42,500 nt of DNA from Chondrilla cf. caribensis (lineage: Eukaryota > Porifera > Demospongiae > Chondrillida > Chondrillidae): contig OZ026546.1 in NCBI GenBank assembly GCA_964020155.1, forward strand, positions 2,495,400 to 2,537,899, read 5' to 3'. Under the pieces are notes generated by a model. The model did no database searches and was not told the DNA's origin. It saw only the letters and a program-made list of their open reading frames with translations. Within the stretch, counting starts at the first letter, position 1, and each line of letters starts with the position of its first letter. Of this stretch, positions 1,049 to 21,700 are shown piece after piece. Made by a program: the position numbers and the translations under genes.

Positions 1049-1063
1049 GTATCCCATACAAAA

Positions 1064-1340
1064 ATCACAAGCTTGTTGACAACCTTGTTACAACCTTGTC
1101 ACAAGCTTGTCAACAATCTTGCGACAAGGTTGTAACAAGCCTGTTGACAAGCTGGTAACAACCATGAAATTGGAATTGTAACATTCTGTTACAACCTGGT
1201 CAACAACCTTGTCACAAGGTTGTTACAAGGTTGTCAACTAGCTTGTTACAACCTTGTCAAAATGAAGGTGGGTTGTGTTGTGCTACAACCTTGTAACAAG
1301 CTAGTTAACAACCTTGTAACAAGCTTGTTAATACAATTGT
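1064..1340. repeat. Left subterminal array of palindromic 10-mers
   Basis: At least a dozen copies of ACAACCTTGT, its complement ACAAGGTTGT and the hybrid palindrome ACAAGCTTGT occur within about 275 bp, usually separated by one base, in both orientations. A unique gap lies around 1,165-1,185. The array begins about 130 bp beyond the stop codon of the BEN gene. The same motif forms the array at 12,313-12,737 and was not noticed elsewhere in the window. Confidence 0.85.
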
Positions 1341-1468
1341 GTTCACGTTGTATAGACAATAGATAAATCACTGGTAAAATTCACAGTACAAAACTCAACT
1401 CAGTCCAGGGTTAACCCCTAACTACTAAATGAGCTCAAACGTGTTGGAATTATGTGAGGCCTAGCTGC

Positions 1469-4400
1469 TTATTTATCTTCCCTCTTCCTCCTGAAGTTTG
1501 CACATTTGTCGTTGATGGCATCAACTAAGATAGATCTTGGTGTTCCTGGGTTCTTCTTCATGACAAATTCTATACAAAGGATAAAAGTGCAAAATCAAAC
1601 CAGGCTTACTGCAAGACAATGACGACTCACTCAAGCATGCTCCTATGATCTGCTTATCCAGGGCTGGGAATTTCCTGCCTCCAAAGCAGCTTGATTTCGC
1701 AAGGATCTGAGGTGTAAAGTACACCATCAATAAATTTCTAATCATTTTGGTGGCTGATGCCCCGCTGCAATCAATAACTTCATCCAGCTGGGGCTGTGTT
1801 ATAACAGCACTGTATCCTTCGACTAGAGGGATCTGTTGACGTACATATAGTACATAAGTACATACTTACTTGCACATATAAATCCACATCTAATTCAATT
1901 ATCATACCTTCTTTTTCTCTTCAGGACCACCAGTAGGAGAGACAGGCATGTCCACTGCAAAGATAGAGACACCATGTTCACTTTTACAGACAGACAGTTA
2001 TTATATGTATCACTTACATGGCAGTTCTTTACTCTTGTCAAATTTTATTTCCCTTTGTATCTAAGTGAATTGTTGTTGAAGATGAGACATACAGTCAAAG
2101 CAATATAACTCAATGACTGAACTCAAAACGTCCATAATCTGTTCACTAATAGTTATATGTGATATATGTGAGCATGCCTATGAGAATGGCCCTTAAGCAA
2201 TTATTCAGGGAAGCCTATTTTAAAGTTCTATCCAATGATACAATCAATAAACACATATCGGACTCTATTAAATGACTATGGACCTTTGCTTGTAGTGTAA
2301 TATATAAACCTGTTCCCAAAATGAGAATGTTTTGAGAACAGGCTTATATACTTCCTCTTTAAGGTAGGCATGTCACTATACACAAAAATAGCAAAAATCA
2401 CCTAAAAAATTGTTTTGTTCTCAAACGTACTAAGCAACTCATCATAACACTTCAGCACCTCATCTTTAGGGGTATAGAAGTGTTTAATAGGAGAAAAAAG
2501 AATAACTGGAAATTTTGACCCTGTTAATTGGCTGTTTTTACAAATTGTGAGCTTTGTGTCAACAAGGCTTAAGGGCCCTTTTTCACATGCATGCTCACAT
2601 TTACGTAAGTGTTCCTCTAAATCACAATTTGGAATCATAATTGAGTATATAAAACATATTTCACTTAAGCTATGCAAGACTTATGAGCACATTGGAGACT
2701 TGCTACAAAACAGAATATTCCCCAAGCTACAGATATCATGGCACTTTTCGCAATAAACTGAAAGTTTATCATGTTCCATACATCGCTCTGTTTCTGATTT
2801 TTACTCGTCCATTTTTTAGTACAGAATGGGCAGTCTGTCTGTTTTAGATAAAATGGTGATTATGTTAGCAACAAGGTAGTGAAGTTTTCAGGCGTAGCTT
2901 AAAAAGATATGCTGAAATTGTGGAGTGATTAACTTCACAAAGCCATTGAATGGCCAAAATCGTTACATTTGCTACCTTCTCAAAATCTATCGTGAAAATG
3001 TGAAAAATTCAAGAGCAGGAGCAGTTTCGAAGGTTAATATAGAAGCGAATGAACGGAATGATGATAAAACTACCTTTGTAGAGTTGAATATGCTCCAAGA
3101 TTTATAGAAGGACAAAATATCCCCAAATTGATACTTTGATAACCCTGGATAGTCGTTAACAGCTAACTATACAGTGTTCCGTCTTTTGTTAATTGTTTCG
3201 CAGCAGATATTTTTCCCGAGCATGCTGCTGTGCTGTAGCAGACGAACATTCAGTTCATTAGGAAAAGTACCGTACATCAACTTCAAGTATAGCTTTTTTA
3301 ACAAAGGTGCAGCGCTATATAGCTATAATAATAAATTAATACAATTACTCACATACCTTTTTTTTCTCTTCACAGTGTGAAGTGGCCAGTGGAGATGCTG
3401 ACATGTAGGCTATAGTGATGGATACATTGCACACATATCAAAGACTCCATTTTTTCAATTGGAACAGGGGACATTACTTACATGACATAGCTTCGGAATC
3501 CTTCACTGAAACACTTTCTTTTTGTTTCTACATGTGAGATCAAAGTGAACAACATGACAATATTCAGATAATAATCCACAATAAGCTACTAAGCACAAAT
3601 GGCACTGTTCACAAGTACATACTTGTCTTCGGAGCATAGATTCCAGCATTTGTATTCTTTCATCTTTTATTCTAATTTCATTATCATAAAGGGAATCTAC
3701 AAAATGGAAATACAATAAAACACCAGGTTAAGAAATTGTCCATTGAATAGTGAGCAAGCTTCTCAAACTCACCTTCACATGCAACATTTACACGAAGAGA
3801 GCTCTGTCCACTCATGCTAACACGATTGACAACACTAGAAGGAGTTGACTTTGCCTTTTTAGGTGTAAGAAATTCATCATCCAATGAAGCATGTGATGAT
3901 GGATAGGCCAATACAGCATCCTTTATGTGATAAAATACAAGAAATGTGACATGTTGTGATATCATAACATTAGTGCAATTAGGTAATGTATTAATTGGTT
4001 TAAATTGAATATGTGTACTTAACTCTCCTGAGTACTGCCATGCGAGCTGCTTTAATTGTATATTATGATGTGATATGGCAATGTGGCACATTCTTAACAA
4101 TTAGTAAGCTTGGCAACTAGTTAGCAAACAGTTCGTTGTCAAGGTTGTTCGGCCTGGTATGAGATTGGCTTGGAAACGGCTGCGTAGTGGCTGTTGAGCG
4201 TTCAGTTTCATATGATGTGTACCGTACATGTCAATTAACTGTGAATCAATGATGTTGACTCCAACCAGTGTATTTTGTGAAGTATGTATACCATAAAACA
4301 GACCTTCTGCCTCTTCCCACTGAAACCTTCTCTTGTATTCACAATTGCCTTCTTTTCCGGGGTGGTGGAGTCAACAATCTTCTCTTCTTCCTCAATGACA

Positions 4401-6326
4401 TCAGCTGTAACATCATCGGGAGATATCTCTCCATTAACAATCTGGTCTTCTAAGTCTTTTAGTGCCTTTCTATCCTCTAGAAGAAATACAAGAACTATTT
4501 AAATCAAAATGCAAACTGTATATTGGAGGTTCTAGACATCTTTTACCATAATACGCTACAAATCATATAAAACTAAACATTTGACGGCCACTACGCAGCC
4601 ATTCCTGAACCAGTTTTGTACCTGACAGTCTTTTTGAAAACGACCTGATGGTATCTGGTTGTTAAATTTACTAATTGCTAAATATGTGCCACCTCATCAC
4701 CAAATATGCCAAGCCAGTCTAATTAGAGTTTGGTACCAATTTCCTCAATTGTCTGCCTTAAGAAAAAGGCTAAATCTAACGCTACACACACGGTCCAGAA
4801 GTACTTTGTTCATGACATGTAGGGAACATCTGGATTCGATATACACAACCATTGTCGAAAAGTTATCAAAAGAAGCTCAACCAATAGTGAGAAGTGAACA
4901 ATGCAGAGTCAAAATAATCTACCAGTAACTTAGATCAGGCAGTGTTATTTCACTTGTCGATTCCCTCTGCAGTGCAAATTCCACCAAATTAACTCGTACT
5001 AAATTACTAATAAACCGCTGGGTCTAGTTACAACTTGAGCATTCCCATACTCGTTCAGGACCTGTTTGTAAACCTGTTCAATACCTGTCAAACACTCAAT
5101 TTCATATGATTGGTATCCCAGTTTTCTCAATCTCATGTAACATTGACACTGTAATTCTGGAAAATAATGTGTGATTAATATAATACGAATAAAAAATAAT
5201 ATGAATCATCCAAATCTGGAGTAATATTATATAAATGCTATCATAAAAATGCATAACACCATTTTGAACACCAGAAATATTGCATGCTCAAAAATGGCAT
5301 TCTAAATAATGCGTGCACATGTGAATTCACCCACAAAGTTCACATTTATAAATTACTGCATTAATTTCCGGAATTACGGTATGACACAAATAGATTTCTG
5401 GTACTAAGTCATTTAATAACCCAATCAACATTATCTTGACTCAGTGTCATTTTGTCAGACATGATCAAACTACAGGATTACGGACAGCTGTGTTGAAATT
5501 CAAAGTGTACTCAGTCTTGAAAACCATTTGCTCTATGCAATGGGAGTTATGTATGTAAGTCGGGGACAAAATGACAGCATTTGTCTCATCAAACAAAGCT
5601 ATAAATACGCTTTCAAATGTTATCAAGAATACAGAAAACAGAAACCGCCTTTTAATACACGTTACACCACAGTATCGAAATAAGCCCGGGTTTCCTGACT
5701 TTTACGCACCGCGGTACGTATTAGTAACCTTATATGACTACTTACTAATACGCACTGCGATGGGTGAGGGTTAGAGTTTAGGTTTAGGGTTTTGGTTAGG
5801 TTTTAGGGTTAGGCTTTAGGGTCAGGATTAGGTTAAAGTTAACCTGAACCCATCGCGGTGCGTAGCTATTAGTAAGTAGCTAGTCGTATAAGTAAGGTTA
5901 CTAATACGCACCTCGTGCATAAAAGTCAGGAACCCCATAAGCCCTTCTCTCCAACAGGGAAAGAACACCAGAGATACACAGATGAAGCTTATATAACCAA
6001 AACACAAGCATTCCTTGCAATCCGTACACTCACGCACACACGTAAATGATACAGATAAGGTCTGTCTCCTCCAAACAATCCCTGTACTACACCCTCCTGG
6101 GTACACATATATATACACAGTACACAAATAACTCACTCGATATCTTTAAAATCAGGGTCTTGTAATATTTCTCCTTCTTCGTTCTTGAATTACCCCACTT
6201 GAAATCCATCGTCACGCCAGGTTTGCATTTGGCAGGATCTTTCGAACATACAGTAGGGACGACGCTGAATAGATTTTCACCTAGCCACTCCACTAGAGCA
6301 AAAGTCAATCCTTCCTCACGTTCCAT
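1469..6326 (-). CDS. BEN-domain protein, 9 exons (two of them alternatives), about 326 aa
   Basis: Exons on the minus strand are 6326-6137, 4476-4304, 3920-3773, 3696-3623, 3527-3482, then 1954-1908 (or 3409-3357), 1832-1631 and 1569-1469. All junctions are GT-AG and the frame stays open (981 nt). The start MEREEGLTFALVEWLGENLF begins a 60-residue segment ending KYYKTLILKIS, a type I associate with BEN-family proteins. An acidic stretch (about 64-121), a Ser/Lys linker and a short coiled-coil-like segment (about 171-195) follow. Residues about 227-322 are BEN-like: LLMVYFTPQILAKSSCFGG, a Pro-Ala-Leu-Asp turn, then ILVDAINDKCANFRRKR at the C-terminus. BEN domains bind DNA and mediate chromatin or protein contacts. 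Its divergent partner is a transposase gene, which suggests it is a DNA-binding accessory of the same element. Donor 4303 (GTCTGT) is weak. Confidence 0.75.
3357..3409 (-). other. Duplicate exon of the BEN gene, phase-equivalent to 1908-1954
   Basis: This 53-nt candidate exon lies between an AG acceptor (3411-3410) and a GTATG donor. It encodes MSASPLATSHCEEKKK. The exon at 1954-1908 (47 nt) encodes DMPVSPTGGPEEKKK with the same phases (in 1, out 0) and the same AAG|GTATG end. Because both enter in phase 1 and leave in phase 0, they cannot be spliced in series without breaking the frame. Either one alone joins exon 3482-3527 to exon 1832-1631. They therefore look like mutually exclusive exons, or one is a relic. 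Confidence 0.5.
4104..4216 (-). repeat. Inverted fragment of the intronic MITE family
   Basis: The complement of this stretch matches the first about 110 bp of the MITEs at 4,557-5,115 and 9,472-10,192, including GGCCACTACGCAGCC-like and AACTAGTTAGC-like words. It lies in the intron between BEN exons 2 and 3, head-to-head with the larger copy. Confidence 0.65.
4557..5115 (+). mobile_element. MITE copy A in intron 1 of the BEN gene
   Basis: About 555 bp with imperfect terminal inverted repeats: AATCATATAAAACTAAACAT at the left, and the complement of the right end reads AATCATATGAAATTGAGTGT. It aligns along most of its length, same orientation, with the copy at 9,472-10,192. Shared words include TTTACTAATTGCTAA, GTTATCAAAAG, and CTGTTCAATACC near the right end. 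No transposase is encoded; an open frame of 89 codons inside is not conserved in the other copy. Confidence 0.75.
5688..5936. mobile_element. MITE with long TIRs, telomere-like core and 8-bp TSD
   Basis: The 249-bp element is bounded by the direct repeat ATAAGCCC (5,680-5,687 and 5,937-5,944). Its ends (GGGTTTCCTGACTTTTACGC, complement of right end GGGGTTCCTGACTTTTATGC) continue as inverted repeats of about 75-85 bp, with the words GTATTAGTAACCTTA and ACTTACTAATA on both sides. The centre, about 5,766-5,834, is a run of degenerate TTAGGG-like units. An 8-bp duplication fits hAT-like elements, among others. It lies in intron 1 of the BEN gene. Confidence 0.85.
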
Positions 6327-6492
6327 TTTAAAAAACAATCAACGATCGAACAGCAGCTGCTCCACACCATAAACCGGTCTAATCCAGCAAAGACGCGCCA
6401 AATTTTCCTAATGCGCATGCGCGAATTCACGTGTTTGCTTCCTGGCCGGCTATCAGGATCAATCGTAATTATTATATGCGGACACGCGGCCA
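6327..6492. promoter_or_regulatory. Shared divergent promoter of the BEN and tnp2 genes
   Basis: Only 166 bp separate the two start codons. The stretch is richer in CG than its surroundings, with GCGCATGCGC (about 6,413-6,422), CACGTG nearby and GGCCGGC, and has no obvious TATA box. Both genes must start from here, so they are probably co-expressed. The GCGCATGCGC word resembles an NRF-1-type palindrome, which is an inference from motif shape only. Confidence 0.6.
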
Positions 6493-9400
6493 ATGGCTGA
6501 GAATCGATCGAGGGGACCATACAAATTGCGACTAGCCACTGATGAGCCAAAATGCCACGCGAGCAGATCAACTGTACATAGAATGAAGAAGCGTGCAATG
6601 TTACAAGAACGTGCACGTGAAGATTCGAGAGAAGTAGATGAATTTCCGCCGAACAAACAGGGCCGCCGAGCCACGGAAGAATGCGTGCTTGATCCTGATG
6701 ATCTAGTCAATGTTGAGGAAAGTCTACCATGCCCTCAGGAATATTCGCAAGAAATCCAAAACAATAGGCGTTCGGGAAGTGGTGTATCTGATGACGATCC
6801 ACGGACAGAAAATGCAGTAGACGATGAGCGTTTTCAATCGAGGCTTAGCGATTTCTGTGATGACAATCCACTTGTAAGTAGCGAAGATGAGCGATTCCAG
6901 GACGAAAGTGATATGTCTCAAGATAATCCTTTGTTGGACGCCATGAGCAGTGATTCGGAAGTAGATGATACAGATGATCAGTTCAGTGACTCTCAATTCA
7001 ATGGTAAGTGACTTGGTATGTGTGAATGTGTGATAAAGCTACTATTTTCATTCTTTCTGTGTACATTGTGGGGCCCATGGACCATCTATGTATTTATGGC
7101 TTAAATTTATATTTTTACATGTCCAGCATATGGAACACCTTTGTACAATGGGGCATTGTTGACTGTAGGAGCCAGCTGCTTTCTGGTGTCAAGATTTGCA
7201 ATGAAACATAAGATTACCAATTCTGCCTTGAATGACCTGTTAAAAATCATTGAAATGCATTGTCCGCGTCCAAATGCCTGCTGTAAGTCTGTGCATTTCC
7301 TTAAAAAGTATCAAAATAGCAATGGGGTAGTATGTGAGACTGACATCGCTTGCACCACTCGTGAATACTGTACTCACTGTTCAGCACAAATATTGGACTC
7401 AAAGTCGCCAAGTTGTGTGAAGTGTAGAGCTTGTATTCAAGGAATTTCAAACAAATCAGAATTCATTATTATGAACATCGAAGATCAACTAAGGACACTT
7501 TTCAAATGTATGTATACACATTTGTACACCAAGCATGTACTATTAGGATGAATAACTTCAGTGTTGTGTGTTGTTTTCTGTAATTTATAGTATCAGAATT
7601 TACGTCAGCCATTCTATCTCATAAGCGGTCATCACCAAGATCAACAATTAATGATATTGTGGATGGGAAATGCTACAGTAACATTTTTCATGCGGGTGTC
7701 TCTTCTGATGTATGTAACTTGACTACTTTATGGAATACAGATGGTGTACCGATTTTTAAGTCATCAGGGTACTCTATTTGGCCAATTTTTTTGATGATCA
7801 ATGAACTTCCCTTTCATCTAAGGTATACAAGCAGCTGAGTATTGAATTGTTAAAGGTTTCATATTAGTATAGACTGTGCTTTATCTTTAACTATTATAGG
7901 AGAAAACCAGAGTATATGCTTGTTGCTGGGTTGTGGTCAGGTAGTAAAAAGCCACCTATGGATGTTTTCCTTCAACCATTAGTGACGTCAATGAAACATC
8001 TCAATGAAAATGGTATTTGTTGGAGCTAGTTTCAAACAATATCATGTTTGTTGTGGTGTTGCTTTACTGTTTGTTTATCTTGGTGTTCAGGTTTATCTAT
8101 CAGTACACCAGCTGGAAAATTTAAGTGCAGCCTTTTTGTCATTGCGGGTTCACTGGATCTAGTAGCCAAAGCTCCAGTATTGAACATGACACAATTCAAT
8201 GGCCTTTATGGATGTCCTAAATGCTTACAGAGAGGTACGTACTGTAAATGCCGTGTTGGTCATTTTTTATGTCATTACACATGTTTTGGTCGGAGGTGTA
8301 GGTTGTACAGTCTCCACTAGCAGTGGTGGTCATGTGCATGTATACCCCTTCAACCACAACAAGCCAGATGGACCTCTTCGATCAGCCAAATCTCACAAGC
8401 AATACTGTTTGGATGCACTTTCAACCTCACAAACAGTAAGATGTACTGTATATGAAATTTGTCAATGACTTGATCTAAATATTGGTGTATGTATATGAAT
8501 CGATGCAATGTCTCCTATTGTGTTTGGAAGGTGTATGGTGTGAAAGGACCCTCGTGTATTATGGAATTGCCTCACTTCGACATCATTCAAGGAATGGCGG
8601 TTGATTACATGCACCAAGCAATCTTGGGTGTTGGGAGACAGTTATTGAAGCTTTGGTTTCTTTCAAAGTATCACAATCGTCCATGGTACCTAGGCCGTAA
8701 CATCCGAGAGGTGGATACCTTATTGCTGGCAATTCATCCTACACTAGAAATGGATAGGCTACCCAGGAGCATTGGAGATACCATGAAGTTTTGGAAAGGT
8801 ATGTTCAGGCCTAATGTTTTACTGATTGGCCAAAAATTCTATTTTTACTTCTCGGCATATGCATATACTGTATGTATGTATACATGCAGCTCATGAAGTT
8901 AGGGTTTGGATTCTGTATTATTCCTTGCCAATCTTGAAAGAACGCCTTCCTCTTATTTACTACCAACATCATGTGGCTCTCGTCTGCGGACTCTATTGTC
9001 TTTCAAAGGATAGTATTGATGAGGCAGATCTCTCTGAAGCCAAATCTTGTTTTGAATATTACTGTTCTGTGTTTTCTGATCTGTATGGTGAGTGGGATGC
9101 TTTCAGTGTTGATTAGTATTCTGACGTGTATATATTATACATGTATCTACTATATGCATGCACATTGTAGGTGTTGACCAGATGACAATAAATGTACACA
9201 GCTTATTACACCTTGTTGAGAGTGTGCGGAATTTAGGGCCCCTATGGTGCCACTCCTGCTTTGCATTTGAGAATGTGAATGGTATATTGAAGTCACTGTT
9301 TCATGGATCACAGCATGTGAATAAACAGGTGTGTTCTTAACTTGAAATAAATTTTCTACTCCATGTGTGGATGACACTACAGAACAGTATACAGTCAGCT

Positions 9401-11061
9401 GTCTATATGCGTTCATTGGGAAACACATATATCCATATACTGTTCCAACTACGTACACTTGTTATTATATAGTACAAATCATATAAACCTGAATGTTTGT
9501 CGGCCACTACATGACTATTTCCAAACCAGGCCGATTTTTTTGGCAAGGACCTGCATGGTTGCCAACTAGTTAGCGAATTTACTAATTGCTAAGAATGTGC
9601 CACATTGCTGTTGAATTCAGAGCCAGTCTAGAGAGAGTTTATTGTACGCACTTCCTCATTAGCTTGCCTTTAAAGGTTGAATCATAGTATAGAATATCTA
9701 TGCTTAAATCTAGCACTACACGTACTGTCCAGATGTGCTTAGTTTGGGATACATAGAGATCGCCTGTATTCGATTTAAAAAATTAGAAAGTTATCAAAAG
9801 GTTCTCAACCAATACTGAGGAGTGAATGACATGGTTTCAAAATAGTGTACCAGTACCATAGCTACGGGCATTTACCGAACTATTCCTCCTATTTCATGTT
9901 ATTCGACATCATAAAAAATGGTGGAAATGGCCACCTTCGCTTTGTTCCAATGCATGAAGAATTATGAGTGACTCTAGTTCTGAATTCTTCAATGCTAAAT
10001 ACATCATATGCGTTGAAAAGTCTACTTCAATACTTGACAATTCCTTCTTGCATGCACAAATACCACAAAATTAGCACTTATTGAGTCCCAAGGAACTGCC
10101 TGGTCTAGCTACCCACAACCCATTCCCATGCTCATTCAGGACCTGTTCACAAACCTGTTCAATACCAGTGAAACGTTCTGTTTGATTTGTACCGTAGATT
10201 GTGAGTACGCTTGTGATGATGAAGAAATTGCCAATTTTGTCAGAATTTCTAACCCCGAGTGATGCATCATCTAGTTCTTTTGATAGATATTCTGTTCACA
10301 GGTATGTGCCAAACTTATACTTATTTGACTTCAAGTCGATAATTCTTTATACTCGTTTTATATGCTTTGTCTTTGCTTTTTCTTTCTTTTGCAGGTATAG
10401 TGTTGTGATATCTGACAGTGTATGTCTTCTACAAAAACCTTTCTTACCAAACTTCAATCAAAATGAACGTGGTCTGGTAGCTTCATACTTTGACAATCTC
10501 GATGGAATATCAGAGTATGCAAAATGTAAATTTGACAATAGAATAATCAAATCTTTGAGATTCTCCTCAAAGACTAGAAGGAATGATTCATGTGTTGCTT
10601 TCAGTCATGGTTCATGTATTGCTTTCGGACTGGTTATCAGAATTCTCAGACAAAGTCGATGTGCACTGCTCATAGCTCCTCTTGATATAAGAGAGCCAGA
10701 GCACCAACTCCCACAATCTACGTGTGGGAGTAGTACAAAACATATTGTGTCTGTCTCAAGACATAGGTACGTATGTGCACTATGTTTAGGTGGTTCTTGA
10801 ATTGGTGTACCATATATTATATATAATATATATATGCATGCATGCAATTAGACTGCCTGCACATGCAGTGCAATTGAATAGAATTTTGTGATCTTGCATG
10901 AATGTAATCCTCTTATTTACTACTAGCCTTCTCTACTATACTGCAGTAAACGGCCACTTGTTGTAGTACCCATTGAAAATGTCAAAAGGAAGTGCTTGTA
11001 TATAGAATTAAAATCTTCTATATTTGTATGTAGTTTTGCTAATCGAGTAGAAGAGTTATAA
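6493..11061 (+). CDS. tnp2/Transposase_21-like (CACTA/EnSpm) transposase, 12 exons, 906 aa
   Basis: Exons: 6493-7003, 7127-7507, 7591-7822, 7900-8012, 8091-8234, 8311-8435, 8531-8798, 8890-9087, 9171-9328, 10198-10301, 10395-10766, 10947-11061. All introns are GT-AG and the 2,721-nt frame is uninterrupted. Residues 1-170 are basic, then strongly acidic. Residues about 171-297 carry PLYNGALLTVGASCF and a Cys-rich cluster ending CVKCRAC. Next come NTDGVPIF (D348), a WPI..INELP.HLRR block, AGLWSGSKKP, LDLVAKAPVLNM (D435), FNGLYGCPKCLQRG, HFDIIQGMAVDYMHQAILGV and NLGPLWCHSCFAFENVNG (E691). These are hallmark blocks of tnp2-like proteins. D348, D435 and E691 are candidate catalytic residues by position only. 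The intact frame means a recently active element or a domesticated gene. Confidence 0.88.
9472..10192 (+). mobile_element. MITE copy B filling intron 9 of the tnp2 gene
   Basis: About 720 bp. The left end GTACAAATCATATAAACCTG pairs with the complement of the right end, GTACAAATCAAACAGAACG. It is a direct-orientation copy of the element at 4,557-5,115, with extra internal sequence around 9,880-10,020. The right end is only 4 bp from the AG (10,196-10,197) that serves as acceptor for exon 10, so the element supplies nearly all the intron's 3' sequence, including any branch point and pyrimidine tract. Confidence 0.75.
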
Positions 11062-12312
11062 CAGCCTATAGCTGCTTGTCAATGTTTTTTTTTTGATTGT
11101 CTGACCATAGTCTATTATGAATTCAATTATGTTTGGTTTCAAAGGCTTTAAGTATAGTACCTACAGATATAACGCACATAAATTATTGTGCATGCAATGC
11201 CTGGACGTACTTATTAAAAGTATAAAACTATATCAACACAAGCAACTGGCAAGACTCCATACAGCTGGCAAATTATCTGCATGAAGATGCACATGCATGT
11301 GGCATCTGCTTATCTTGATCTACTATTGACATATTTACCAACATAGTTACCAGCCAATACATAATAAGAAATATATACATCTAATATTATTCTGGACTGA
11401 TGCACCAATAAATGCAGGCATTCCTGCATGCTTGCTGCTGGATTCAGATTTGCATGAGTTGGCGGCGGTGCCAATAAGAGAATTAAAGCAAATCGGAGTT
11501 AAGCTCCACCATGGTGGAGCTTATAACTCCGATTATGTATTGATTGACAACTTTATATTATAATTTATATTAATGTTTTGTATGGGTTTGTATTCAATTG
11601 ACCATGTTTTGATATAATGGACTGGTGCGGTTTTGGCCGATAATCTACCAATTGCGTAAGGAGTACAAGCATCATTTGCACTACACATTGAAGCTAAGAT
11701 TTATGGAAGGCATTAAGCCTAGTATAACATTATAATAGTGATCCAAGTGAAAGAGCTGAAGCTGTTTCATTGAAGAGTTTTCATCTATAGATTTTTACCC
11801 TATTAATAATTAAACTGTTACATATTACTATACTAGTAAGGCCAAAATAATACACAATTTATAAGCACAGATGGCTGAACTTGAAATGAGTGTAAATAAG
11901 AGGATAAAGTTTACTGGTGCAAAAAGATTTAAACTGTCACAAATGCTATTCATTCTATTATAATATGTTGTGATGATGAAATTATAGCTCTATTTTAATT
12001 ATAATTCTTGAGTTTAGCTGTTACAGACACGTGCACTTTGCTTGTAGTTCCATGGGTTTGTGATAAAATCAGGCAACACTGCCAAAAATTATTATTCCCA
12101 AGTCTTCTGTCGGAAAAACATATATATGGCATAATATTATTATATATATAATGTATAATAGATATTGTGCTTATTAATATTAAATTAAATATGCATGTAT
12201 CAACAAATTAACATATGTTGTTGAACATGTCAGCTAGCCAAAAGTGTCAGTCAGGCCAATGATTCTGACATATAATTTACTAGTATGTAAAGAATCTATT
12301 ATTGAATATGTG
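11062..12312. other. Non-coding stretch downstream of the tnp2 gene
   Basis: No further exon is seen. It is AT-rich, with AATAAA at 11,407-11,412, a plausible polyadenylation signal for the tnp2 gene about 350 bp beyond its stop. It contains the strong inverted repeat listed separately at 11,491-11,534. Confidence 0.5.
11491..11534. repeat. Near-perfect hairpin with a 20-bp palindromic top
   Basis: Left arm AATCGGAGTTA (11,491-11,501), then the perfect palindrome AGCTCCACCATGGTGGAGCT (11,502-11,521), a TA bulge, and right arm TAACTCCGATT (11,524-11,534). The arms give 21 paired bases with a 2-nt bulge. It is GC-rich within AT-rich DNA, about 430 bp past the tnp2 stop codon. Confidence 0.85.
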
Positions 12313-12737
12313 CTTGGACAACCTTGTACGAGTTTGTTTATATTATAGCTAATATAATCAGTGGAATTTTAACCTAGGCCTTATGCAAGCTTTTCAAATG
12401 TTTCAACATCTTTGTACAAGATTGTTGAAGCATTAGGGTTAGTTTGACAGCAAGGTCATCTCAACAACCTTTTACAAGCTTGTCAAATGCTTCAACAACC
12501 AAGTACAAGGTTGTCTTATGCCATGACAACCTTGTACAAGGTTGTTATGGGCTCTTACAACCTTGTACAAGGTTGTAAAGTGCATGACAATCTTGTACAA
12601 GGTTGTTATGGGCTCTTACAACCTTGTACAAGGTTGTTCACAGCTTTTTACAAGGTATCTACAACCTCATACAACCTATTACAACCTTGAACAAGCTTGT
12701 GACAAGATTGTAACATGCTGGTAACAAGCTTGTCATT
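12313..12737. repeat. Right subterminal array of palindromic 10-mers
   Basis: It has the same ACAACCTTGT / ACAAGGTTGT vocabulary as the left array. The core holds four 20-bp palindromes of the type ACAACCTTGTACAAGGTTGT at 12,526, 12,557, 12,587 (one base changed) and 12,618. Their spacing of 31, 30 and 31 bp makes a 61-bp tandem repeat. Outward copies degrade and end with ACAAGCTTGT at about 12,724-12,733. Short open frames across it are by-products of the repeat. Confidence 0.85.
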
Positions 12738-13129
12738 TTCATATGGGTACCGATACATCGCCATGATTATTCGAGCCACATGGACGGCAATGTCGGGATT
12801 ACTAATAATACTAATAATAATATACAGTATGGGATGTGCTTTACCGTATATCCATAGACATGATATCAAAAGGAACTTTTTCCTACTTATCACACTGTAT
12901 TTTAAGTCAATGTACCATATAGCTTTTGATAGCAGTTTGTAATTCACTAATTAATTGTAGGCTACAACATCCTGTGTTTTAAGTGACTGATTATAGTGTA
13001 TTCCTGGTTAAACCTACCAAAACTTCGTACTATTCATAAAAATGTATCCCATACCAAACAGAGAATTTTGCCCCGAATATGTATTATATTATATATGAGA
13101 ACTGACAAAACAGAAAAAAATTAAATCAT

Positions 13130-15708: not shown

Positions 15709-18700
15709 TTAAGACACAGTCTGATAAGCAGGAGAAGGCTCCATTTTGACAACATCAGTCATTTCAGAATAATAATAGTCACCTTTAGTACCACACACTG
15801 AAGACACAGTCTGATAAGCAGGAGAAGACTGCATTTTAATAATATTGTCTTTCTCTGGATCTTCATAGATAACATCTCCATCTCCACCTTTCTCGTTTTC
15901 TTTCTTTTTGATACAAGGACGTCCTATAATCACAGAAAACAACACACTAATTTCATGTACTTACACGACAATCACTATTAATATGTATCACGTACACTTA
16001 TGATGTTTGAATTCATGTTTGAATGAATTTGTACATTTCAACTCATTCTAGATGTTACAAGTGAGGTCATGTGATTAACACATTACTGGTTAACGGATTC
16101 CTAGCAGATTAACTGTGAACAGATATTGCATTACTTCCAACTGATATCCCGTTATCACTAAACAGTTAACTGATATTACAGTGACATAAATTTACCTTTC
16201 CCGTGGTCTGTACACTACTAACATTTTATAACTTTATAACTAAAGAACAACACGAGTCATTAGATAGCATCAATTCCTGGTTTATTTTTTACATAAAAGA
16301 TGCCTAAATTACGGTGGTACGTAACAGTAATGGATAAAAGTTACCAGTTAAACTGATAACCGTTAACGTTTTCGAAGAAACTTTACCCGGAAACTGTTAG
16401 CGGTTTTCAGATAATCGTTAACTGAAAATGATATACATATGTATGAATACGTATATACATCACAGCATAGCAAAAGTGCTTAATCAAAGTGTGATTTCAG
16501 GGACTCGGAAAGAATGGTTCTTGGAGTGAAAGAATGGAACTTGCTTGGGTGAGAGTGTAGCTTCTTCTGTTAGTAAGTACAACGATCTTGCCTCAATAAA
16601 ACTCACACTTTGTGATCTGATCATGTGCTCACGTCATGGAAATGCGCTTACATAATGCGTTAACGGTTAATGGTTTATGGTTAATGGTGCACCGATAAAG
16701 GCTGACGTTTATCCGTTATCTGAAAACCAGCAAACGAAACTACTATTATCTTTTTTATGGACCGCACTGTACATGGCATCAAATGTACATATTACAAAGA
16801 ACATAACAAAACATGTTAATTTCAAATCACCCAGATATTGGGTACATTTTCAGTCCAGTATTACATCAGATGACCATTTTATTGAGTTGTATGAATAAGA
16901 CAAGAACATATAATATTATATCAGATATTGAATCTGATATAAGGCCAATGCTGTCTTTGCAGTATGAGAGAGAGTTTACGAAATTGGAAAATATGGTGAT
17001 GAATGTGGTGAAAGTTGGTTTACATATTGTTTGTTATAAATGTACTATATGGAATGCCGGAATGGCTGAAGTGTGCTATTATAATGAGAATATATACCCA
17101 GCATTGTACCCTCATGTGTAATATAGTGTGTACAGGGCAGTGATCACATTCAACCTTTATACTTTATTGTTTACAAAATGATTCCTGCAAACACAGTATA
17201 CACGTGTGAACAAATTACACAGAATGACCACAATTAGGAACAATGAAATTCTAACCAACAACTAAACAGCAAATTCTTGCAGATGCCAGTAGACAAATCT
17301 TGTGTACTGTAAGCAATAACCAAGCACCTTCACATACCTTTCACACCATGCTTTTTCTTCTTACACCAAATGACAACCACAATAGCAATAATGACAACAA
17401 GGACCACCAGTATGATGGCTGCAACAATTGGCACCACAATGGGAACTATGGAGAGAATATGCAAAAGAGGATATATTGCACAAAAAGTACAATAAATGTT
17501 TTATCAGTACAGTTTCAATGTAAAAATAATAGATATATCCTGCCTAGGTATGCTGCAGCAAATGTCAAGTATTGAATAATCATAATGCAGTTGAAAAGCT
17601 AGCTTGTGCCCTGGTATAGACAATTTACGGTCCGGTTTGAAAAAAAAACTAAATGTTATCTTTTTTACCCTTTTTCTGTCAACGGTTAACTGTTATCTGT
17701 GAACCGTATGCGAATAGTACCTAATGATAGGTACGAATTGTACAACATATGAACGATCAGTTGGAGAGTCTGTCGACCAGATCCAGGAAGATGAGAGATG
17801 GTCCCATGTCTTTTGTACTTTTGAATCGTTGCCCAAACCCTGGCCTGCAATAAGTCCTTCTATGAGGACTAAGAATTCATAACGTACTGTTGACAGTTAT
17901 CTGTTAATGGTTATCGGTTAACAGGTAACAGAAAATAAGGTAACTTTTAACCGATAAACGTTAACAGCTATTGGATTAACAGGTGACTTTTATCTAGTAA
18001 TGTTTATTTTTTTCAAACCGTATCATATATAGTTGAATGTTTATGTAGTCCAATATAAAATATCATAATTATACATCCTCCCGGGTTCTCACTCAATTAA
18101 ATCTAACAATGGAACTTGTCTAGTGACCTGTACAGTTATATTATATGACTTGTGTTATACAAACTATATATCAGCATACCTTCCTTTTTGATCCACCTGT
18201 CAATCATACACCCATGTACCAAGACACCAGTACGTAACATAAATAATGTATCCTAACAAAATAACCACAGAGGATGTTGCCGTTACACAACTGGCCAATA
18301 CATGGCATAGGATAGTTATATTCGAATACATGGTCTGCTCATTCTATTTCATTAGTTTAGTGTTTTCATTACACATTCATTTCAACAGATGCTGTAAGAT
18401 ATGGTAAGTACATGCAGTAATTCAATATGGAACGCCAAATGCAACAAAAATAGGGCAGGTCATGTATACGCTAAACAAATAGATAATCGATTACAAAATC
18501 GTTTTCAAAATCAACATTCGACTAAAAAATCAGTATTCGATAACAAAATCAAAGAAAAAAAAAATCGTTTTTACATTCTGAAACGATTGGTCAATCAATT
18601 ACAAGATTGATCACAAAATCGATTATAAACTCGAGCAGCAAATCGATTACAAAATCAATTACAAACTCGAGTAGCAAGTCAATTTCATGCCAAACGTACT

Positions 18701-21700
18701 CTCAGACTGCAACCCTTTCAAAAGCAAGGTTGTTTGTGACAATCACATTTGTGACATGAAGCCATATTAGTTTTGCGAAGGCATCAGTATTCTGTTCAAG
18801 TTCCCAATGTCATCTAGATGGGTACCATAACTGATCAGGTGCATGGGGTTTTGTCATCCGTGGTGTAATTGATGGATACAGCTGTCTGATCACGTTTCTC
18901 GAATTGTTGACCAACAACAGATCTGATACTGTATTATCTGCTTTCCTTTCTGCTGTGCATGAAATTGGTCTCCCATCAAGAGTGAGGATAGACCAAGCTG
19001 GAGAAAATGTTGGAGTGGCTCGTTATATGCTAGAGCACCCACAGCGAGGAATAGAGAGAAGGAGTGTGATAACTGGAAGAAGTATGCATAACCAAAGAAT
19101 TGAAAGATTGTGACAGGATTTGTTTGCTGGTTGCATCGTCATTTCTTTTATTTCTTAGAGGACGAGAGAATTTTTGATATAGAGGATATACAGCATGTAT
19201 GTGCTCAACATCTTGCTTTTGCACCTGTAATTCAACAGCAGCTTGATATATTTTGACATGGTTGGGCTAACCATAGCCTTAGGACAGAACATAACAGAAC
19301 CCCACAACAGCTTTGGATACTTGAAACCCATGCAATGAGGAATGTGGATCAAATGCATGATTCAGTGACTGGACTGTTGGATGTATGCTACTAAAGTGTA
19401 CATGTCTATTGTAAACATTATGATTATTGTTCCTTATTATATAGTCCAACTGGAGTGACTAACAACAACTAACAACAAATGACGACACCACAGTAATGTT
19501 GCAAGATGTCCCTGATATCATTACCGCGGAAGAAGTAACAGAATTTAACTCAAACAACAGCATCAGTGGATGTGATTTGTCAAGAGAACTGCCTTTAAGA
19601 CATTTTGAGTCACCAAGTCCTTTGTGTGTACTCGGTGCGTACTCATGCAACCTAACTCAATTTCATTTCATCTATAATAATATTATGCATGTATACATGT
19701 CAGTACTAGTTTTTCATTATTATACAGTAATAAGGAATAAGCAAAGATTCTACATGAACCATAAACATATATAAATGTATATAAATTAATGCTTTCGAAG
19801 AGGTTGCAGAGAACCATTTTTAGTTCAATTTTGTAATCGATTTGCGAATCGATTTTTTAACGGACTGTCGATTTTGAAAACGATTTGCGACTCGATATAG
19901 TAATCGATTTCCGATTCGATATAGTATTCAATTTTTGAGTCGACTGTCGATTTTGTAATTGATTATCTATTCGTTTAGTGCATACATGACCTACCCTATT
20001 TTGTCGCATTTGGCGTTCCATAATTCAGTACAATGCAAACATACCAATAGGGAGTCCGGGAGTTGGAGTTGTAGGTGGAGGTGGAGCTGCAGTAATGATT
20101 GGGAAGGTGAAGATAATTACAAAGGAAAAATATTGAGTAATTAGAAGGTGACTAAGTCCATAAAAGGTTCATGAATATAAGTACATCAAAGGATAAGGAT
20201 ATTGCTGAAACAGATATGTATTCCTCCTTGTCAGAAAGTATGCATTAAATATAGTCTCCTACACCACAAAGAATTACACTAGTTGATAAATCTGGGAGAT
20301 GCCATTCAATTCAAAAATCACATGCCATTGGGGCTATATACCCACCTAAACAGCTTGGCAGTCCCAACAACATTCAAAGAACCCCACGTTAGAGTTGGCA
20401 GTGATGATATTCTTATCCATCAGATTTGTACTCCAATTTGAAACCCTTTGTATTACAAGATCAGTCATCCCTCTCATGCAATACAATTTATCATGTGAAA
20501 TAAAAGTAAAAACACTTCCATTTCAATATAACAACGGACACATAACATAGGAAGTTTGTACAGTGATACCTGGGCATTTCCTCTGAACAAATGTGTCATT
20601 GGTCTCTATTCCTAACATACTTAGATCATTACATACTCATGCAGTGTAATTTGTTCTGACAGTATACAACTGACTCTTTCATACACTGTGATGGAAAATG
20701 AACTGCATGGAAGGTTGAGCAATTTGTGTAAAGATACATGGAAATACTGAAGACATGGACACATTTACTGCATGAGGTGAAATGATGAGGTTATTATCAT
20801 TTGGTTTGATTAACAATTTTTTTACATAATATTATATCACTATGATGTGGAAATGGCAATTGAAAATATGGCAGTCGGATTGAAAAACAGTACTTGTTGA
20901 CCACTGAAAACATTAACTTATCATGCAGCAAAGTTGACAACAGTTCTTTAGATTGTTTAAAGGCAAGAGCAAGTGAAAAGTAAGTGCTCTCTTCTAGCGG
21001 ATCATATGCCAACGACAAGCAATGTCTATATATGTGACAAAGAATGGATTACATTAATTCAAATAAACTTGATAAAAATGACCTAAATTTCACAATATTG
21101 GGCCCCAAGCAATTAATTGTGCATATAAACTTTCGATAATGTTTTGGATGGAAGCCACAAAACAGAATAAGTTTACTTCACTGAACTGCTCAGTAATGAA
21201 TTATCAACTTAATGTGGACATCGTAAAAATGAAGACTCCATTGATATTGTTTCCACAGAATACTACATGAAATGATCAACTGACAACAGGTAATAACCAA
21301 TTAACCAAAGGTACATTCATAATATATATATACCAGTATTAGTAAGCTAATGTACACTTACCTGTAGCACTTGCAGAACTTGCACTACCTGCTCCACAGT
21401 TGTTGATCGGGGTAACTGTAAAATTATATGTTGTATTAGAGTCTAGTCCACTGATTGTACATGGACCACTGGGGGGACATGTCCCACAGTTTAGTGGTGA
21501 TGATGGATACAGGTGACATTAACTGATGTCACTGGAGGATTGTTAGAGGGTTAATCCCAGGTGATTTGTACACTGGTGTCGTTAATCAGCAGTGCATCAA
21601 CATTCATGAGCTGTGAAGGAACATCTAAATCATTAGAAAATATAACATAATAATATATACATACGTACATGGCACAAGAAACATTACTCACTGAAGGTAA

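What the first reader, a model, noticed from the sequence alone, without database searches (positions are those of the whole stretch)
1049..12751. Two-gene transposon pairing a BEN-domain protein with a tnp2 transposase
Two intact, intron-rich, divergent genes are enclosed by arrays of one palindromic motif and by imperfect TIRs (23 of 29 positions). In plant CACTA elements a second protein (TNPA) binds subterminal repeats and works with the tnp2-like TNPD. Here the second gene encodes a BEN domain, a metazoan DNA-binding fold. If confirmed, this is an animal element that uses a BEN protein in the TNPA role. Both frames being open suggests recent activity or selection.
Basis: partly seen in the sequence, partly recalled or inferred. 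Interest (0 to 1): 0.88.

Follow-up and report, generated by a model that had tools for sequence, protein, structure and literature searches.

The report
Transposons that carry BEN DNA-binding proteins
In this genome, likely an animal's, a family of DNA transposons carries two genes, a transposase and a BEN-domain protein that likely binds the repeats at the element's ends, and BEN genes also ride in an unrelated transposon type, which suggests that a DNA-binding domain known from animal gene regulators and viruses also serves jumping genes.

Summary
Confirmed and extended. The window element runs 1053-12747 (11,695 bp; TIRs 24/29) with two open, divergent, intron-rich genes: a tnp2-type transposase (909 aa) and a BEN protein (358 aa). 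The same genome has three more families of the pair, each in two TIR-bounded copies (aligned parts 98-99.9% identical) with unrelated flanks. All eight large elements have CCCA..TGGG ends; 6 of 8 have exact 2-bp target duplications (not the window copy), and four insertions have empty paralogous sites without a gap at the junction. Arrays of a palindromic motif are packed at the ends at helical spacing; the motif differs in the family with the most divergent BEN protein. The BEN call holds: a 5-sequence profile hits NAC1's BEN domain at 1.6e-9. The TNPA role is inferred. Strict CACTA membership fails (ends, duplication size), but the CMC catalytic signature is present. Unexpectedly, 27 of 42 BEN frames found in the genome lie within 3 kb of a Tc1/mariner-type (DDE_3) transposase frame, always on the opposite strand; one such family is TIR-bounded with a relocated copy. 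So BEN serves two unrelated transposon types here. Our literature searches (listings and passages) showed no report of either.

The parts
1053..12747 (.). Whole element W (11,695 bp), CCCATA...TATGGG
   Evidence: TIR match and comparison with relatives that end at the same sequence
1053..1081 (+). BEN-side terminal inverted repeat
   Evidence: 24 of 29 positions match the other end
12719..12747 (-). tnp2-side terminal inverted repeat; its outer 18 bp equal the terminus of family F1
1067..1340 (.). BEN-side subterminal array of the palindromic motif ACAANNTTGT, steps mostly of 11, 12 and 23 bp
12461..12733 (.). tnp2-side subterminal array, steps mostly of 10-11 and 20-22 bp
1469..6326 (-). BEN gene, 10 exons (6137-6326, 4304-4476, 3773-3920, 3623-3696, 3482-3527, 3357-3409, 2018-2060, 1908-1954, 1631-1832, 1469-1569), 358 aa, predicted
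   Evidence: splice model; relatives in 3 other families
1473..1832 (-). BEN domain (exons 9-10)
   Evidence: Pfam below cut-off in W, over cut-off in F3, profile matches NAC1 BEN at 1.6e-9
6137..6326 (-). conserved N-terminal module of the BEN protein (exon 1), no known fold found
   Evidence: A2, 34-59% identity to W between families; no convincing PDB match
6327..6492 (.). 166-bp gap between the two start codons, likely shared divergent promoter
   Evidence: coordinates; promoter function inferred
6493..11061 (+). tnp2-type transposase gene, 12 exons (6493-7003, 7127-7507, 7591-7822, 7900-8012, 8091-8234, 8302-8435, 8531-8798, 8890-9087, 9171-9328, 10198-10301, 10395-10766, 10947-11061), 909 aa, predicted
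   Evidence: Pfam PF02992 1.1e-11; D, D, C2C, H3H, E invariant in four families
4557..5093 (.). repeat in the first BEN intron, related to 9473-10174 in a tnp2 intron (65-73%); likely nested non-autonomous elements
9473..10174 (.). repeat in a tnp2 intron, relative of 4557-5093

Best explanation
The window holds an 11,695-bp TIR-bounded member of a family of two-gene DNA transposons, made of a tnp2-type transposase and a BEN-domain protein that likely binds the palindromic repeat arrays at both ends and likely helps the transposase pair and cut them. Shown: relatives of this element have moved as one unit that includes both genes, with CCCA..TGGG ends, 2-bp target duplications and clean empty sites; both genes are present, and open as modelled, in four families; the motif arrays are packed at the ends. 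Inferred: the BEN protein binds those arrays, probably as rows of molecules one or two helical turns apart, and so does the job of plant TNPA, while the tnp2 protein does the job of TNPD. It may also repress its own divergent promoter. Also inferred: the window copy moved in the same way and is now old or inactive.
For: Three further families of divergent BEN/tnp2 pairs, each in two TIR-bounded copies; homology stops at the CCCA terminus, with unrelated flanks. All 10 exact genome matches to CCCATATNAAAATGACAA are ends: 9 of the F1, F2 and window elements, 1 of a 157-bp derivative. Exact 2-bp target duplications in 6 of 8 large elements, about 1/16 expected for each. Four of 8 joined-flank queries match paralogous sites across the junction without a gap there, one of them keeping an open frame. 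Codon position 2 differs least and position 3 most in both genes between families. 9-10 of 11 tnp2 introns and 3-4 of 9 BEN introns share position and phase. Motif packed at the ends. BEN profile hits NAC1, whose BEN domain selects the palindrome ACATGT (PMC7764960, abstract and passages). In F3, whose BEN domain is the most divergent, the ends hold CATG 17 times against a shuffled mean of 6.4 and only 2 CTTG-type motifs. A 2.2-kb derivative (F3c) keeps both ends and has lost the tnp2 gene.
Against: No binding, expression or transposition data. The window copy has no close match to its exon 7 elsewhere and no exact target duplication; F3c has none either, nor has the 157-bp derivative, one end of which is not CCCA. 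The motif shift between F3 and the others is one contrast on one tree, so it is weak evidence of co-evolution. The motif also forms stand-alone arrays; five of the places listed were fetched and a simple pattern check saw no TIR pair. For the other tnp2 loci of this genome no BEN frame was found within 20 kb, so tnp2 transposases need not use BEN. Gene models of the relatives rest on a home-made spliced aligner guided by the window proteins; the middle of the BEN protein is poorly modelled. 733 bp inside F2b were not read.
Confidence: 0.68

Rival explanations
1. The pair is a mobile element, but the BEN protein is a regulator or host-interface factor (for example a repressor of the divergent promoter or a chromatin-targeting factor) and not part of the cutting complex; the arrays are bound by the transposase or by host proteins.
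For: Known animal BEN proteins are transcriptional and chromatin factors (abstracts and passages of PMC7764960 and PMC11472053). The genes are divergent with a 166-bp gap. The N-terminal module has no recognised function.
Against: The motif is packed at the two ends, with 0-2 sites in the whole interior. In plants the second protein of tnp2 elements both binds subterminal repeats and suppresses, so both roles can coexist (PMC2613891 passages).
Confidence: 0.22
2. The window pair is a domesticated host locus derived from such a transposon, kept for a host function.
For: No close match to its exon 7 elsewhere in the genome, no exact target duplication, both frames open.
Against: TIRs still match at 24 of 29 positions and the subterminal arrays are kept, which a domesticated gene pair would not need; sister families are mobile and, as modelled, equally open. 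An old but undecayed insertion explains the same facts.
Confidence: 0.06
3. The BEN gene is an ordinary host gene that happens to lie beside tnp2 in a few segmental duplications.
For: Each of the three other families is in exactly two large copies (F3 with one more deletion derivative), as duplications could give.
Against: Copies sit on different contigs in unrelated flanks and end at TIRs; the six copies carry exact 2-bp duplications, and four insertions have empty sites. The three other families, 39-59% identical to the window in the main BEN exon, keep the same divergent order.
Confidence: 0.01

Closest known systems
Plant CACTA / En-Spm elements (TNPD/tnp2 plus TNPA or TNP1)
   Same: tnp2 transposase, second element-encoded protein, subterminal repeat arrays that vary between families, non-autonomous derivatives that keep the ends
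   Different: Ends CCCA..TGGG instead of CACTA..TAGTG, 2-bp instead of 3-bp duplication, separate divergent genes instead of alternative splicing of one unit as in Spm, and a BEN domain in the second protein; plant TNPA and TNP1 are said to share little similarity (PMC2613891 and PMC4158355, passages read; that no plant second protein has a BEN domain is recalled)
Animal tnp2 (Transposase_21) proteins, e.g. in Branchiostoma, Crassostrea, Mercenaria, Nothobranchius
   Same: 33-45% identity for nearly all of 103 homologues, over most of the 481-aa core
   Different: Their genomic neighbours and ends could not be examined here; whether they carry a BEN partner is unknown
CMCT elements of fungi that carry a TET/JBP dioxygenase (EnSpm, ESTA, Plavaka)
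   Same: CMC-type transposase with C(2)C and H(3-4)H, 2-5 bp duplication, an extra protein captured by several unrelated transposon lineages (PMC12730594 passages)
   Different: Cargo is a dioxygenase, fungal hosts, other termini
NAC1/NACC1 and other BEN-domain transcription factors
   Same: BEN domain; NAC1 is the closest solved structure by sequence profile
   Different: Host factor with a BTB domain (PMC7764960 abstract); not known to me as part of a transposon

Membership tests
CMC/CMCT (EnSpm-Mirage-Chapaev-Transib) transposons | DDE transposase with C(2)C and H(3-4)H between second D and last E | tested here: met
   A3 invariant D68, D155, C174xxC177, H390xxxH394, E414 in four families; which acidic residues are catalytic is inferred from the pattern
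CMC/CMCT (EnSpm-Mirage-Chapaev-Transib) transposons | 2 to 5 bp target duplication | tested here: met
   exact 2 bp in 6 of 8 large elements; one copy of the 2 bp in the four empty sites aligned
CMC/CMCT (EnSpm-Mirage-Chapaev-Transib) transposons | 5'-CA..TG-3' termini (in most cases) | tested here: not met
   termini are CCCA..TGGG in all 8 large elements; CA follows two C. The source says 'in most cases', so this is not a strict criterion
Transposase_21 (tnp2) protein family | Pfam PF02992 over its cut-off | tested here: met
   44.8 bits against 28.6, E 1.1e-11
CACTA elements in the strict sense | CACTA/TAGTG ends and 3-bp duplication | tested here: not met
   CCCA..TGGG and 2 bp
TNPA-like accessory protein | element-encoded, binds subterminal repeats, required for transposition | not testable with these tools
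   only encoded-in-element and presence of end arrays were shown
BEN domain | Pfam PF10523 over cut-off or match to a solved BEN domain | tested here: met
   W alone 13.0 bits, below 23.2; F1 19.5 and F2 19.3, below; F3 30.1, above; profile of five sequences against NAC1 1.6e-9, BEND6 0.078
Tc1/mariner-type elements, here with BEN | DDE_3 transposase and BEN frame inside one TIR-bounded unit that has moved | tested here: met
   L061 436-3260, copy L064 at 99.5% with other flanks; TIRs TACGGTACACGACACAATTTGT / TACGGTACATGAAACAATTTGT; one family examined end to end
Tc1/mariner-type elements, here with BEN | TA target duplication | tested here: inconclusive
   the unit begins and ends with TA in L061 and L064, but no empty site was sought, so duplication and TIR cannot be told apart

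The most novel reading that the evidence does not exclude
BEN is at root a transposon end-binding domain. In this genome BEN proteins are a regular second gene of two unrelated DNA transposon superfamilies (tnp2/CMC type and Tc1/mariner type), and host BEN factors such as NACC1, BANP and Insensitive, like the BEN genes of viruses, descend from such element proteins.
Probability: 0.3. Interest if true: 0.92.

Novelty: new variant of a known kind. Interest (0 to 1): 0.8.

Why it matters
Plant CACTA elements use a second, fast-changing DNA-binding protein; the papers that we found name no animal counterpart. Here that slot appears to be filled by a BEN domain, with sequence-defined candidate sites at both ends of recently moved copies, so the role can be tested directly by a gel shift. 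That BEN genes also sit beside Tc1/mariner-type transposases suggests repeated recruitment of one domain by unrelated transposons, much as TET/JBP enzymes were recruited in fungi, and gives a possible source for animal and viral BEN regulators.

Tried and rejected
Domestication or plain duplication of the window pair: made unlikely (domestication) or rejected (duplication) by empty sites and TIR-bounded ends in the sister families. Strict CACTA membership: rejected by ends and duplication size. Fold of the N-terminal module: profile search gave only weak coactosin matches (E 0.058 or worse), not used. Common origin of the N-terminal modules of the tnp2-linked and the Tc1-linked BEN proteins: looked alike by eye, but profile comparison gave no support, not claimed. 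DUF4806, described as a BEN subtype in PMC11075544 (passage): no match in this genome, but the control genomes were silent too, so this is not evidence of absence. Other motif arrays: five places fetched to look for small derivatives (L067-L071), no TIR pair by a simple pattern check; the rest of that list was not fetched. dN/dS was not computed (synonymous sites look saturated); codon-position counts were used instead. Structure prediction was not run: spliced proteins and sequences from this genome search are not on that tool's list of accepted input. A first joining of loci assumed a wrong orientation, corrected; the table is not used.
Full report
What is there. The window (G000:C1:2495400-2537899) holds two divergent genes. 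By GT-AG splicing the + strand gene gives 909 aa in 12 exons and the - strand gene 358 aa in 10 exons, both without stops. The first is a tnp2 transposase (PF02992, 44.8 bits against a cut-off of 28.6). The second ends in a BEN domain. Alone it is below Pfam's cut-off (13.0 bits), and so are the F1 and F2 models (19.5 and 19.3 bits; the F1 model with its badly modelled middle left out), but the F3 model is above it (30.1 bits against 23.2). A profile of the domain from the four families and one database protein (P0001, trimmed) matches the solved BEN domain of NAC1 at 1.6e-9 and BEND6 at 0.078.

Other copies. Protein searches of the same genome found three further families in which tnp2 and BEN lie back to back. 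Each has two large TIR-bounded copies: F1 on C2 and C15, F2 on C2 and C5, F3 on C6 and C9. (733 bp inside the C5 copy of F2 were not read; the C9 copy of F3 carries about 4 kb of extra sequence.) C5 also holds a 2,188-bp F3 derivative (F3c) that keeps both ends and the 3' part of the BEN gene and has lost tnp2. Aligned parts of the copies within a family are 98.1-99.9% identical, and homology stops abruptly outside the genes. There all families share a terminus: CCCATAT.AAAATGACAA in W, F1 and F2 (W with 2 mismatches at its BEN end), CCCAGG(T/A)(T/C)AAAATA in F3. The ten exact genome matches to the first pattern are nine ends of the W, F1 and F2 elements and one end of a 157-bp derivative on C1. 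With two mismatches allowed the pattern found 86 places against 51 for its reversed control, so weak matches were not counted.

Ends, duplications, empty sites. The element lengths are W 11,695, F1a 12,043, F1b 11,912, F2a 8,432, F2b 8,404, F3a 8,164, F3b 12,341 and F3c 2,188 bp. The flanking dinucleotides are AG/AG, CA/CA, TG/TG, TG/TG, TG/TG and TT/TT for F1a to F3b; they differ for W (AT/TA) and F3c (CA/TA): 6 of 8 exact, where about 1 in 16 is expected for each. The 157-bp derivative also lacks an exact pair. Joined flanks of all eight, with one copy of the dinucleotide, were searched in the genome. F1a, F1b, F2a and F3b match elsewhere across the junction. For the other four no such match is listed, but only 40 of 538 candidates were scored, so this is no evidence of absence. 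Four of the 42 listed places were fetched, one for each insertion: identity 177/180 (F1a), 168/180 (F1b), 171/180 (F2a) and 173/183 (F3b). None has a gap at the junction; F1b has a gap nine bases from it, and in F3b the base next to it differs. F2a lies in an open frame of a multi-copy family, and the joined flanks keep that frame open, as in the paralogue, so it likely interrupts an exon. This shows transposition of units that include both genes.

Constraint. Between W and F1a, F1b, F2a and F3a, differences per codon position are 0.34-0.44 at position 2, 0.41-0.52 at position 1 and 0.61-0.65 at position 3, in both genes. Nine or ten of 11 tnp2 introns and three or four of nine BEN introns share position and phase. 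The models come from an aligner guided by the window proteins. The transposase keeps D, D, C(2)C, H(3)H and E in all four families, the signature of the CMC group (PMC12730594, passages).

The end arrays. CAA[CG]CTTG occurs 24 times in the two 400-bp ends of W, 16 in F1a, 14 in F1b and 36 in F2a, but 0-2 times in the 7.6-11.2 kb between; 300 dinucleotide-model shuffles of the ends gave at most 2. In W the full palindrome ACAANNTTGT recurs at steps of mostly 11, 12 and 23 bp on one side and 10-11 and 20-22 bp on the other, near one or two turns of DNA. F3, whose BEN domain is 45% identical to W's against 57-62% for the others, has only 2 such motifs but 17 CATG in its ends (shuffled mean 6.4, none of 300 shuffles as high); W, F1 and F2 have no excess of CATG. 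NAC1's BEN domain selects ACATGT with core CATG (PMC7764960, abstract and passages). This fits BEN binding to the arrays and a motif that changes with the protein, but it is a single contrast. The motif also forms stand-alone arrays: five of the places were fetched (L067-L071) and showed no TIR pair.

How it likely works. In maize Spm, TNPA binds the subterminal repeats and is required together with TNPD, and TNPA and TNP1 of different plant elements share little similarity (PMC2613891, passages). By analogy the BEN protein likely coats the arrays, brings the ends together and lets the tnp2 protein cut at CCCA. It may also repress the divergent promoter. These steps are inferred.

A second carrier. 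A scan for PF10523 listed 42 frames at E up to 1, 28 of them over the cut-off; a scan for DDE_3 (PF13358) listed 71. Both score only the best candidates. 27 of the 42 BEN frames (20 of the 28 over cut-off) lie within 3 kb of a DDE_3 frame, all 27 on the opposite strand, where about 0.14 are expected under uniform placement. Several are near-identical copies of one family, so they are not 27 independent cases. Of the other 15, three lie in F3 elements and one (C22:1443957, L065) is a deletion derivative of the L061 unit. In L061 a 2,825-bp unit with TIRs starting TACGGTACA holds both frames, and its copy in L064 is 99.5% identical with other flanks; Pfam confirms DDE_3 (1.5e-20) and BEN (27.6 bits, over cut-off). 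A second family (L060, L066) also ends in TACGGTAC; only one of its ends was held, and its BEN frame scores 20.1 bits as a protein and 23.7 in the genome scan. By contrast, none of the nine PF02992 frames of other tnp2 loci lies within 20 kb of a BEN frame, by inspection of the lists; these scans miss some BEN exons (one search missed those of W, F1 and F2). So BEN serves two unrelated superfamilies here, and apparently not every tnp2 locus.

Prior work. Full-text searches for 'BEN domain' with transposon and transposase (5 papers), mariner, sequence-specific and palindromic, DNA transposons, transposable element or EnSpm (264 papers holding two of three terms, only 25 listed and all but one of these without 'BEN domain', so this search says little), and for DUF4806 listed no paper whose title or abstract start concerns BEN in a transposon. 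I read passages of PMC12730594, PMC7764960, PMC2613891, PMC11472053, PMC4158355, PMC11075544, PMC5704228, PMC4574769 and PMC7642931, none of them whole. Subscription papers and Repbase entries were not searchable. Named relatives of the transposase are mostly animal proteins, with one protist and one bacterial label. One Hydra genome table lists DUF4806 beside transposon-type HTH domains (PMC7642931, passage), a lead only.

Limits. One genome of unnamed species; whether the pair exists in other animals could not be tested. The BEN protein has few relatives in the protein database (1; 5). Gene models are predictions.

Noticed in passing
L061:436-3260, L064:429-3252, L065, L060, L066; genome-wide list: 27 of 42 BEN frames found in the genome lie within 3 kb of a DDE_3 transposase frame on the opposite strand; one family is a two-gene Tc1/mariner-type element with a relocated copy.
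   Followed up: partly
window 4557-5093, 9473-10174 and 4083-4226: Related repeats (65-73% identical) sit in introns of both genes, likely nested non-autonomous elements.
   Followed up: partly
window about 18430-20025: Inverted ends GGAACGCCAAATG.. enclose a broken integrase-like frame: another, decayed element (read by eye).
   Followed up: no
G000:C2:3014720-3023151: Copy F2a interrupts an open frame, likely an exon, of a multi-copy gene family (..YGSPRKHIWTYAVGL..FVGDHYYCESG); paralogues give the empty site.
   Followed up: partly
L067-L071: Stand-alone arrays of the same ACAACCTTGT-type motif without a TIR pair; origin unknown.
   Followed up: partly
window about 5690-5930: A palindromic repeat around TTAGGG-like units in the first BEN intron (seen).
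   Followed up: no
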